Part shown: piece by piece, positions 11,009 through 64,000 of the stretch
Layout: every line of letters begins with the position of its first letter
How positions within the stretch are numbered: the first letter of the stretch is position 1
NCBI GenBank assembly: GCA_030144725.1
Contig: JASKMD010000008.1
Location: 20,472,029-20,536,028 of the forward strand
Direction: 5' to 3'
DNA from: Haematococcus lacustris
Lineage: Eukaryota; Chlorophyta; Chlorophyceae; Chlamydomonadales; Haematococcaceae
DNA length: 64,000 nt
The notes under the pieces: model-generated
Told to the model about the DNA's origin: nothing
Database searches by the model: none
Seen by the model: the letters and a program-made list of their open reading frames with translations, nothing else
Position numbers and translations under genes: made by a program

Positions 11009-14000
11009 GTGTTCCCAGCGCACGGCCCGGGCGTGAAGGCGCCCTCCCTGCAGGATGGACAGTACGTGCTGCAGGTGGGCAGCCTCAGTCCCCGGCTGAC
11101 AGTTCAGCTCTGCACAGTGTGTTCCATGGGGTGCATGTAAGGGCCTGTGGGCGTGTGGGCCTCCCCCCTGAGGTGAGCTGCCTGACACACTGCCCTGTCC
11201 TGGGCACCCCCACTGTAATGCTGTCAGCGGTGACACACAACGCCTCCCTCCGCCCCTCACTTCCCTCCGCCCTCACCTCCCTCCGCCTTCCAGCCTGTGG
11301 CCCTACCGCCCTGCTCTCCCCTCACTAGGCCTGCTACCACCCCTTGCTTTGCTTACCACAGCAACGGCACGCCCTGGCCCTGCCTGCAGGGGGTGCGTGC
11401 GCTGTGCCTGCGTGCCAACAACACCGAGCTGGTGTCGGGAGGGTCTGACGGCTCCCTCCTGTGCTGGGATGTCACCAGCGGCAGCCTGGGGCGCCTGGTC
11501 AGGACGGTGCAGGTGTGGTCCAACTAGCGGGAGGGTGGTAGGGCAGGAGGGGAAAGACATTAAGACACCAAGACGTCCAGGATGGTGGGCTGCCAGGGGA
11601 AACAGAAGAAGGAGCGGGCGACTGAGCAGGTGGCTGGGAGGGCTGGGTGAGATGTTTGCTGACAATGGTTACCCACTTGATGCAAACAGGGGTTCAAATC
11701 CCCAGCCCTGCAGGAGCAAATCAAATGAATCTCCAAACGTTGAAACGCACCTCGACGCGCGTAGCCCGGCATATCTTCTGTGGAATATGACAGGTTAATC
11801 TATGTGCAAGCCCGCTCCCTCGCCTAATGTCCCCAACCCTCTGCGACTCCATCGCCTTCCCCTTCCCCGTCACCCTGCCTGCCTGCTTGCCCGTCCGCGA
11901 TCCTATCGCACCGCCTCTTCGTCTCCCCAACCCTCGCTCATCAGCCTCCGTATACGACCCTAACAACCTACCCCCTCGCCGCCTTGCCGCCGCCTCCTCG
12001 CGACCCTGACCGCAGTTCGCCGAGGTGGGGGAGTCCACGCCCTGCTCCTGCCGCTCGCTGGACGCGCGGCCCGGCAGCTACGACCTGGTGGTTGGCACCA
12101 ACCGCTGCGAGGTGTGGGAAGTCACACGCGGCCGACGCGCCGGAAGCCCTTGTTACAGGTTGGTGAGGTTGCGCGAGCCGCACCCGGCACCCTGTGGCAC
12201 ACGGTCGCTCGCCTCTCTTTGGGCGACTTATCTTTGCCTCTTTTCGCTCTCTCCACGCTCCCAACATCAGAAACGAAAAATGATGCGTGATTTCATCACT
12301 CCAGTACGAAGTCCTGTGGCTGGTCGGCCGGTTCAACCTGCAATTAGGCCTGGGGTGCAATCACGTCAGCAACCGGGCACCTAAACAGGCAAGCCTTGTC
12401 CATTGCAGGGCCACACTGATGACGTGTATGGCCTGGCTTGGCACCCCAAGAAGCCATACAAGTTCGCAACAGCGTGCGACTCCTCCAACGTGTTTCTGTG
12501 GCATGCCAAGCGGCGCCAACTCATCGTAGGTGTGCCTAGTGTGAATCATACAACAGACCTTGTCTTCAGGTGTGTGAGTGTGGTTGGTGTCGAGCCTACT
12601 AGCCCAGGACTCAGACTCAGCTCCCCACGTGTCTGGCAGCATGTTGCTGGTCTGCGGTGTGGGTGATGAGGGGCACCGTGCTGCCTAGCAAGCTTGCTGA
12701 GGAACACGCGCCTTTGTGGCAGCATGCGCCCTGATTTGTGGCTTTGTGCTAGAGGCTGCTGTGATGCACCAACCTAGACCCTTATGCAACTAAGGCCTGC
12801 TGGGTGCTGACTCGCCTCTGCTCGTCATCACTCGCCAGGCCAAGGTTAACATTGGGCTGCCTGCCAGGTCTGTGGCCTTCTCCCCTGATGGAGCCCACCT
12901 GGCTGTGGGCACGGCCACTGGAGCCATACGGGTGTTGAAGGTAGGTCACCACCCACCCACCCACCCACCCACCCACCCACCCACCCACCCACCCACCCAC
13001 CCACCCACCCACCCACCCACCCACCCACCCACCCACCCACCCACCCACCCACCCACCCACCCACCCACCCACCCACCCACCCACCCACCTACCCACCCAC
13101 CCACCCACCCACCCACCCACCCACCCACCCACCAACCCACCCACCCACCCACCCACCCACCCTCCCTATTTCTCCATTGTCTTCATGCACCACTTTTTAT
13201 CACTGCAGCTCCGCACCCCTTTCCCCTTTGGCGCCTGCCCTGACATCTCGGCTTCTCACATCTTTCCTGCCCCAGGTGGATGCCCTGGCTCAGAAGCACG
13301 CCGAGATGCACTTTGCCAAGGAGAGTGTGGAGGTGCTGCGCTACTCCCCCGACTGCTCCAGGCTAGCGGCAGGATCGCATGACAACCACATAGACATCTA
13401 CGACACCACGCGTGGGTGAGTTGGCTGGCTTGGCTCACAGGCGAGACGTGTGATGCTGTGCTACTGCCAGGCAAGAGATGAGAGCACTGGGCTGGAAAGG
13501 CTGTAGATAACGCTGTTTGAACATCACTGGAGATGCACGCTCTTGTCCATGCTTGCTTGGCTAGCGCATCACCCAGCAACGGCTGCAACGTGACAACAAT
13601 CAAGACGCGCACAGTGGTATGTTTTTGTTTGCATGACTAATCCATTTCCCCTTAGTAGAGCATAACACCCTTGCCCTCCCCTCCCCTCCCACCCTACCCC
13701 ACCCCTGAATGGTCTCCTTCACCCTGGCGTGGGAGGGTTGACGGGGGATCACACCCGATGCTGTCCTCCCTCTCCCTGCCCGCTGGCAAAGGTGTGGTCT
13801 GTCTTTCTTTCTTCCCTGCACCCTGTCAATTTTCAACCTTACCTCCTTCTCCCTGCCATTTCACCTCCCTAGACCCTCCCTTGCACTGGCTAACCACCAA
13901 TCACACAGTTATAATAAACACATACAGACACAATAACATTGCTAACCACAGCAAATCACCACGCTGTGATTTAGCCGTGTGGTTTGCATCAGGCAGGGCT

Positions 14001-64000: not shown

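What the first reader, a model, noticed from the sequence alone, without database searches (positions are those of the whole stretch)
11009..63628. A single gene joining an EML propeller to at least 20 PLAT domains
97 exons can be placed with matching splice phases over 52 kb, from WD40 blades with the EML hallmark (VLGFPVMGIW, SDGT) into 20 PLAT repeats. LOXHD1 (PLAT array) and EML proteins (microtubule binding) are both linked to cilia-type structures, so a protein combining both would be a built-in membrane-to-microtubule linker. Seen: exon order, phases, motifs. Known: family roles. Inferred: one transcript and flagellar function.
Basis: partly seen in the sequence, partly recalled or inferred. 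Interest (0 to 1): 0.85.

Follow-up and report, generated by a model that had tools for sequence, protein, structure and literature searches.

The report
Algal EML–PLAT giant fusion gene
A green-alga gene encodes one giant protein that joins part of a microtubule-binding protein to twenty domains of the kind found in a hearing protein; the same joined protein is predicted in many green algae and is probably a strap between membrane and microtubules.

Summary
I rebuilt the gene as 96 exons (11009-63421, plus strand; 93 GT-AG and 2 GC-AG introns, no stop, 3123 residues). Pfam finds one complete second EML propeller and 20 PLAT domains. This is strong evidence for one gene, though no RNA was seen.
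The fusion is not unique: 28 listed proteins carry both domains, 26 of 278 fetched pass my own test, and the 14 named ones are Chlorophyta. Dunaliella tertiolecta is 61% identical over 3029 aligned residues, with 19 of 20 PLATs reciprocal best matches in order. PLATs 9-16 look like duplicated two-PLAT units.
The first propeller, HELP motif and 5' end are missing here, near a 500-N gap; the 3' end is open. Flagellar location and membrane-to-microtubule linkage are inference. Seven literature searches listed no paper on such a fusion. Verdict: real, conserved, apparently uncharacterised; a new architecture of known families.

The parts
11009..16255 (+). Ten exons (11009-11074, 11390-11512, 12016-12111, 12409-12569, 12868-12940, 13276-13415, 14128-14263, 14862-14977, 15463-15597, 16105-16255) encoding the second EML propeller
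   Evidence: PF23414 1-266/266, E 2.5e-90; best solved relative EML1 4ci8, E 3.8e-53
16876..16981 (+).
   Evidence: Called by the ab initio gene finder before homologues were seen; carries the linker motif V[YF][EQT][AP][AP][KR]R, present in the linker of 14 of 26 fused relatives and nowhere else in the 278 fetched proteins (motif chosen after seeing the alignment)
17927..18116 (+). Exon joining the rest of the linker to the first strand of PLAT1; no in-frame ATG from the upstream stop to the exon end
18085..19937 (+). PLAT 1
   Evidence: 117 bits
19947..22135 (+). PLAT 2
22187..24117 (+). PLAT 3
24127..26245 (+). PLAT 4
26273..28108 (+). PLAT 5
28742..31557 (+). PLAT 6
31567..33377 (+). PLAT 7
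33706..35725 (+). PLAT 8 (exon 35639-35776 probably mis-bounded; the one repeat without a reciprocal match to P0001 and P0002)
36408..39897 (+). PLAT 9, first of the period-two block 9-16
39928..42084 (+). PLAT 10
42118..44428 (+). PLAT 11
44963..46990 (+). PLAT 12
47027..48605 (+). PLAT 13 (shares three intron positions with PLAT 15)
49071..50883 (+). PLAT 14
50902..52429 (+). PLAT 15
52827..54456 (+). PLAT 16
54469..55562 (+). PLAT 17
56581..58722 (+). PLAT 18
59184..60544 (+). PLAT 19
61136..63393 (+). PLAT 20
63355..63628 (+). Last exon in the window, modelled to 63421 but open to a possible donor near 63628; the gene probably continues beyond the window
10065..10564 (.). 500-N assembly gap just upstream, where the first propeller, HELP motif and 5' end of the gene are expected

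Best explanation
SHOWN: the sequence reads as one gene encoding a giant protein with the second EML propeller, a conserved linker and 20 PLAT domains. It belongs to a protein family whose named members are Chlorophyta; longer relatives also have a HELP motif and the first EML propeller, and before them a region that looks EF-hand-like to the eye. INFERRED: the tandem EML propellers dock on microtubules, as in EML proteins. The PLAT array forms a long rod of domains that contacts membrane lipids and membrane proteins, as PLATs do in lipoxygenases and LOXHD1. The protein then works as a strap or scaffold between a membrane and a microtubule bundle, most likely in the flagellum or at its base, holding membrane channels or receptors at a fixed place relative to the axoneme. 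My odds: single gene about 0.97; membrane-to-microtubule strap about 0.5; flagellar location about 0.5.
For: One gene: 96 in-phase exons without a stop. Linker exon 16876-16981 was predicted ab initio, and its motif recurs in the linker of 14 of 26 fused relatives and nowhere else in 278 fetched proteins. No TGTAA and no in-frame ATG in the junction. The Dunaliella protein is colinear, 61% identical over 3029 aligned residues, with 94 of 96 exons well aligned. Family: 26 of 278 fetched proteins pass my fusion test. Domains: Pfam. EML1 structure match 4ci8, E 3.8e-53. PLAT match to coral 11R-lipoxygenase 3vf1 and to polycystin-1 structures. Function by family: calcium-dependent membrane binding by the PLAT domain of some lipoxygenases (PMC7436259, passages). 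LOXHD1 as a connector between tip link and transduction channel complex (PMC10802736, a preprint, passages). The EML-like FAP16 is a flagellar protein whose mutants fail in acid deflagellation in Chlamydomonas (PMC5068960, section 18). The worm EML protein ELP-1 associates with microtubules and adhesion complexes and is needed for normal touch (PMC2642796, abstract and section list).
Against: No RNA, proteomic or localisation evidence was available. The window holds only the second propeller, so microtubule binding through a complete EML tandem propeller is inferred from relatives. Only 2 of 20 PLATs carry the exact N-D-F-E loop of the coral lipoxygenases; 12 have N-N-F-E, 1 N-N-F-Q, 2 D-N-F-E and 3 others, so calcium binding is uncertain. 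PLATs can bind proteins rather than lipids. Tetradesmus and Scenedesmus, rarely seen with flagella (recalled), carry the fusion, and absence in flagella-less algae was not tested. The 14 PDB sequences matching a PLAT pair are lipoxygenases, polycystin-1 and a Rab6-interacting protein; no axoneme structure is among them. The linker motif is not found in 12 of 26 fused relatives.
Confidence: 0.5

Rival explanations
1. Two neighbouring genes, an EML gene ending near 16255-17000 and a separate LOXHD1-like PLAT gene starting near 18000, wrongly joined by exon chaining.
For: No transcript was seen; the junction introns (620 and 945 bases) are longer than the median of 404; one AATAAA at 17810. Stand-alone PLAT arrays and EML proteins without PLAT both occur in the same algal group (P0081 and P0252 of Chlamydomonas incerta).
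Against: Conserved bridging exon and linker motif; fused homologues, 26 of 278 fetched proteins; no TGTAA in the junction against 30 on the plus strand of the window, and no ATG in the frame of the first PLAT exon.
Confidence: 0.03
2. A cytoplasmic or cortical scaffold: the PLAT array binds proteins or plasma-membrane lipids at the cell cortex, basal-body roots or another membrane, and EML anchors it to cytoplasmic microtubules, with no special flagellar role.
For: EML proteins also act on interphase and spindle microtubules (recalled); worm ELP-1 sits at adhesion sites and cytoplasmic microtubules (PMC2642796 abstract); Tetradesmus and Scenedesmus keep the fusion.
Against: A related EML-like protein, FAP16, is flagellar in Chlamydomonas; LOXHD1 works in a sensory protrusion, though an actin-based one. 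Neither is decisive.
Confidence: 0.3
3. A purely structural protein-protein ruler: the PLAT array packs along doublet microtubules or links axonemal complexes and has lost membrane binding.
For: Repeat order is kept between the window and Dunaliella or Edaphochlamys (19 of 20 reciprocal best matches each, all same-numbered), and the array seems to have expanded in two-PLAT units, as expected for a length-critical rod; the loop residue that is Asp in coral lipoxygenases is mostly Asn here.
Against: All 20 window repeats keep an AG[TC][DN] loop and 17 of 20 an acidic/amide loop motif. The same counts are 10 and 2 of 17 for frog LOXHD1 and 13 and 5 of 18 for P0081, but also only 9 and 6 of 13 for the fused Myrmecia protein and 14 and 8 of 14 for the Pedinophyceae one.
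Confidence: 0.17

Closest known systems
LOXHD1 (animal PLAT-array protein)
   Same: Long tandem array of PLAT domains (17 counted in frog P0021 by my profile; 15 repeats stated for LOXHD1 in a passage of PMC8051682)
   Different: No EML propeller found; only 3 of 17 frog repeats are reciprocal best matches to window repeats, and not in the same places. Two divergent fused relatives match poorly too, so this alone does not exclude kinship of the arrays
EML1-6 / EMAP family
   Same: Complete second EML propeller; relatives of the fusion also have the first propeller and HELP
   Different: No PLAT domains known in EML1-6 (recalled); here 20 PLATs follow
EML protein without PLAT in Chlamydomonas incerta (P0252)
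   Same: In the propeller tree it lies with three unnamed proteins next to the fusions (branch 97/86); HELP and EML propellers and a similar N-terminal region
   Different: 1207 aa, no PLAT
Stand-alone green-algal LOXHD1-like proteins, e.g. P0081 (C. incerta), P0056 (Edaphochlamys)
   Same: 17-18 PLATs
   Different: No EML; only 4 reciprocal best repeat pairs between P0081 and the window, not same-numbered but for one
FAP16/ADF3 (Chlamydomonas)
   Same: EML-like flagellar protein with WD40 repeats (PMC5068960, section 18)
   Different: 192 kD, said there to be closest to EML5/6; no PLAT mentioned in the section read; its sequence was not compared here
Predicted proteins named PLAT domain-containing / Lipoxygenase homology domain... 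in Dunaliella, Edaphochlamys, Chlamydomonas schloesseri and others
   Same: Same fusion; 20 PLATs in P0001-P0005 and P0009
   Different: Longer records carry N-terminal parts missing from the window; the names shown mention only the PLAT half

Membership tests
EML/EMAP family | Second EML propeller | tested here: met
   PF23414 1-266/266, E 2.5e-90
EML/EMAP family | HELP motif and first propeller | tested here: inconclusive
   Not found before 11006, but a 500-N gap lies there; present in relatives P0002, P0007 and P0063 (in P0063 the first propeller only in part)
EML/EMAP family | Microtubule binding | not testable with these tools
   needs biochemistry
LOXHD1 family | Tandem array of many PLAT domains | tested here: met
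   20 PF01477 stretches
LOXHD1 family | Repeat-by-repeat match in order with LOXHD1 | tested here: inconclusive
   Reciprocal best pairs with the window: frog P0021 3, crinoid P0019 2, algal P0081 4, against 19 for P0001 and P0002, 12 for P0012, 10 for P0122, 9 for P0126; but the divergent fusions P0159 and P0026 also give only 5 and 2
Chlorophyte EML-PLAT fusion family (defined here) | EML second propeller, linker, then PLAT array in one reading chain | tested here: met
Chlorophyte EML-PLAT fusion family (defined here) | Single transcript in this species | not testable with these tools
   no RNA data
Calcium-binding PLAT/C2-like domains | N-D-x-E loop ligands (ligand identity recalled; the search for a paper found 0) | tested here: inconclusive
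   Exact in 2 of 20 repeats; near variants in a further 15 of 20

The most novel reading that the evidence does not exclude
[quoted passage not shown] The algal protein would couple ciliary membrane channels mechanically to axonemal microtubules, and it predicts that LOXHD1 and an EML protein act in one complex in animal mechanosensory cells.
Probability: 0.17. Interest if true: 0.85.

Novelty: new variant of a known kind. Interest (0 to 1): 0.52.

Why it matters
A protein of up to about 4200 residues is conserved in green algae, the group of the main laboratory model for cilia, and seems to have no description in the papers I could search. Its two halves belong to families tied elsewhere to hearing (LOXHD1), touch (ELP-1) and flagellar shedding (the EML-like FAP16). 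Domain fusion often marks proteins that work together, so it gives a direct, testable link between two families; the two LOXHD1 papers I searched for the words EML and microtubule hold neither. It also allows a test of whether a PLAT array is a membrane strap.

Tried and rejected
Rejected: two separate genes (see rivals). Chance PLAT motifs: 0 profile matches in 793 minus-strand pieces and in three shuffles. Missing HELP/first propeller hidden upstream: tblastn with the N-terminal parts of 12 relatives found nothing credible before 11006. Rfam: 0 matches at gathering score in the window. The first gene-finder run was over-permissive (up to 484 exons) and was discarded; the length terms were corrected. 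A first curated model (94 exons) omitted the linker exon and one exon at the PLAT 14/15 boundary (50826-50933); both were put back, among six edits.

Led nowhere: a search of the window's own genome (not answered, machine busy). Literature: seven answered searches on the fusion or its families listed no paper on an EML-PLAT fusion, judged by titles and the starts of abstracts; one search listed 20 of 27 papers, and of these I looked into two (PMC6215392, one passage, only a reference; PMC5068960). Searches served for PLAT and LOXHD1 function; (lipoxygenase calcium ligands) found 0 papers. Structure prediction was not run: no fused relative is within the 1200-residue limit and pieces of relatives are not clearly allowed.

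Limits: the PLAT profile used to count repeats in relatives was built from the window and P0001. It counts 17 in frog LOXHD1, for which 15 repeats are stated, so it may over-count; Pfam gave 20 for the window and for P0002, 13 for P0063 and 20 for P0007, where my profile gave 22. By my profile D. salina P0006 has 18 and the partial UWO 241 protein P0008 has 21. Pfam columns in the protein lists are cut short for some rows, and two of the three searches list only their best 120, so fusions may be missed. P0008 and P0174 carry both domains in the lists but did not pass my test. The junction finder worked for 10 of 24 relatives, found none for 10 and picked a wrong place for 4; one search replaced it. 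C. reinhardtii itself was not seen by name. Absence of the fusion in flagella-less algae was not tested. In the propeller tree (27 fusions and 21 proteins without PLAT that I picked out of 121) the fusion label needs 2 changes because one long-branched protein without PLAT (P0266) falls inside; one origin is not ruled out. P0260 was dropped from that tree as too short.

Full report
WHAT IS THERE. I anchored the recognisable exons by their peptides and chose splice sites by phase and site score, then made six edits. The result is 96 exons from 11009 to 63421, 9370 coding bases, 3123 residues, no stop, 93 GT-AG and 2 GC-AG introns with a median length of 404 bases. Pfam reads it as one full second EML propeller (PF23414, 1-266/266, E 2.5e-90) followed by 20 PLAT domains (PF01477) (run on a 3089-residue version without the linker exon). 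A PLAT profile gives 54 matches in 794 plus-strand open pieces, 0 in 793 minus-strand pieces and 0 in three shuffles (that profile includes the window's own repeats, so Pfam is the independent evidence).

Between the last propeller exon (16105-16255) and the first PLAT exon (17927-18116) lies exon 16876-16981. The gene finder had called it before any relative was fetched. Its peptide EQYVVYQAPRRNRAAADPLAL aligns with EQYKVFTAAKRKGVAADPLAL in Dunaliella tertiolecta, with PEVYVYEAPKR in volvocine relatives and EIEVYEPPRRR in Myrmecia. The motif V[YF][EQT][AP][AP][KR]R, which I wrote down after seeing that alignment, is in the linker of 14 of 26 fused relatives and of the window, 0 times elsewhere in those proteins and 0 times in the other 252 fetched proteins; 12 of 26 lack it. 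It belongs to neither domain, so its conservation ties the two halves together. The junction 16256-17926 has no TGTAA (the usual algal poly(A) signal, recalled; 30 on the plus strand of the window) and one AATAAA at 17810. The first PLAT exon has no in-frame ATG back to the upstream stop, and reading through past 16255 meets a stop at 16301. One gene is the only comfortable reading, though no RNA was seen and no promoter test was made.

WHAT IS MISSING. The propeller present is the second of the EML pair. N-terminal parts of 12 relatives find nothing credible before 11006. A 500-N gap lies at 10065-10564, and a reading frame matching a HAD-type hydrolase lies at 8784-9164, about 2 kb upstream of 11009. 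The gap may be a placeholder for several kilobases. The 3' end is also open: the last exon continues to about 63628 and Dunaliella has 168 residues after my model's end.

RELATIVES. Three protein searches (17 and 40 list their best 120 of 760 and 414, all 68) brought 28 proteins whose precomputed domains include both PF23414 and PF01477. By my own test (propeller E below 1e-20 and at least two PLATs), 26 of 278 fetched proteins are fusions, against 121 with EML and no PLAT and 101 with at least two PLATs and no EML. Fourteen of the 28 carry an organism or class name: Dunaliella tertiolecta and D. salina, Edaphochlamys, Pleodorina, Astrephomene, Chlamydomonas schloesseri, Chlamydomonas sp. UWO 241, Tetrabaena, Gonium, Tetradesmus, Scenedesmus, Sanguina, Myrmecia and a Pedinophyceae strain. 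All are Chlorophyta (lineages of Myrmecia, Pedinophyceae and D. tertiolecta looked up; the rest recalled). The other fourteen come from environmental or unnamed gene sets. Longer relatives carry HELP and the first propeller (P0002, P0007; P0063 with the first propeller in part). Against D. tertiolecta the window is identical at 1856 of 3029 aligned residues (61%), and 94 of 96 exons align well (at least half their residues aligned, at least 30% of those identical). In a propeller tree of 48 rows (27 fusions with the window, 21 without PLAT) the window groups with Dunaliella (100/97), and the fusions sit next to four EML proteins without PLAT, one of them from C. incerta (P0252; branch 97/86), while the Mesostigma EML falls in the other half. 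The fusion label needs two changes because one long-branched protein, P0266, falls inside.

HISTORY OF THE ARRAY. Each of the window's 20 PLATs best matches the same-numbered PLAT of Dunaliella and of Edaphochlamys; 19 of 20 are reciprocal, PLAT 8 being the exception. Tetradesmus (12 PLATs) has 12 reciprocal pairs in order, Myrmecia (13) 10 and the Pedinophyceae strain (14) 9, with 2-7 same-numbered in both; the divergent environmental fusions P0159 and P0026 have only 5 and 2. In the direction window to relative, 9, 11, 13 and 15 all best match repeat 9 of Myrmecia and of the Pedinophyceae strain, and 10, 12, 14 and 16 all best match their repeat 10. Within the array, repeats 9-16 are more alike at even than at odd spacing: the alternating split ranks first of 35 possible splits in 7 of 7 arrays tested, and PLATs 13 and 15 share three intron positions. 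So I infer that the array grew in two-PLAT units before Dunaliella, the window species and the volvocines parted. P0001-P0005 and P0009 all have 20 since (D. salina 18, Tetrabaena 22 by my profile but 20 by Pfam, UWO 241 21). Matches to LOXHD1 and to a stand-alone algal array are few (2-4 reciprocal pairs); as two divergent fusions do little better, kinship of the arrays is left open.

HOW IT PROBABLY WORKS. Shown: the architecture and its conservation. From family knowledge: EML proteins bind microtubules; the nearest solved structure is EML1, 4ci8. The PLAT domain of some lipoxygenases binds membranes with calcium (PMC7436259, passages), and PLATs can bind proteins (PMC8051682, passages). 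The nearest solved PLATs are those of coral lipoxygenases and polycystin-1. LOXHD1 keeps TMC1 channels at the tip link (PMC10802736, preprint, passages). The EML-like FAP16 is flagellar and its mutants fail in acid deflagellation in Chlamydomonas (PMC5068960, passages and section 18). ELP-1 sits on microtubules and near adhesion sites and is needed for touch (PMC2642796, abstract). Inferred: a long strap with its head on microtubules and a PLAT rod reaching a membrane and its channels, most likely in or at the base of the flagellum. All 20 window PLATs keep an AG[TC][DN] loop and 17 of 20 an acidic/amide loop, but only 2 of 20 have the exact lipoxygenase N-D-F-E and 12 have N-N-F-E, so calcium control is open.

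WHAT SPEAKS AGAINST. No expression, location or binding data exist here. Algae rarely seen with flagella (Tetradesmus, Scenedesmus; recalled) keep the gene. The absence test in flagella-less algae was not made. A protein-only ruler or a cortical scaffold remains possible.

NOVELTY. Predicted members are already in databases under names that mention only the PLAT half. Seven answered searches of the held literature on the fusion or its families listed no paper on an EML-PLAT fusion, judged by titles and abstract starts; most subscription papers are not held. I therefore call it a new architecture of known families, interesting as a testable lead on cilia and mechanosensation rather than a new kind of system.

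Noticed in passing
8258-9164: Plus-strand reading-frame pieces just upstream of the assembly gap; 8784-9164 matches a HAD-like hydrolase (PF13419, E 3.5e-06), while the pieces 8258-8329 and 8497-8655 gave no Pfam match.
   Followed up: partly
2359-2454 and 4334-4507: Two related ORF ends (CNAALN...KWRPLELC) that recall the C-terminal motif of TnpB/Fanzor-type nucleases (recalled resemblance); Pfam gave no match for the first and one sub-threshold match, RecA_dep_nuc E 0.015, for the second.
   Followed up: partly
about 16422-16449: Short internal run of TTAGGG-like telomere repeats inside the intron next to the EML-PLAT junction.
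   Followed up: no
61897-62619, 25445-25748, 15017-15420, 12949-13166, 50109-50457: Very long, nearly perfect microsatellites (CCTG, CCACC, CCAC, CTCCCC; up to 181 copies) inside introns of this gene.
   Followed up: no
related proteins P0081, P0056, P0028, P0034: Green algae also have LOXHD1-like proteins without EML and with 17-18 PLATs by my profile; Pelomyxa P0010 has 28.
   Followed up: partly
related proteins P0002, P0005, P0122, P0252: A conserved N-terminal block before HELP (EF-hand-like to the eye, then a F-x-GKI..CRKP..P..WD-type motif) is shared by fusions and the C. incerta EML without PLAT; the EF-hand loop looks degenerate in the fusions and canonical in P0252.
   Followed up: no
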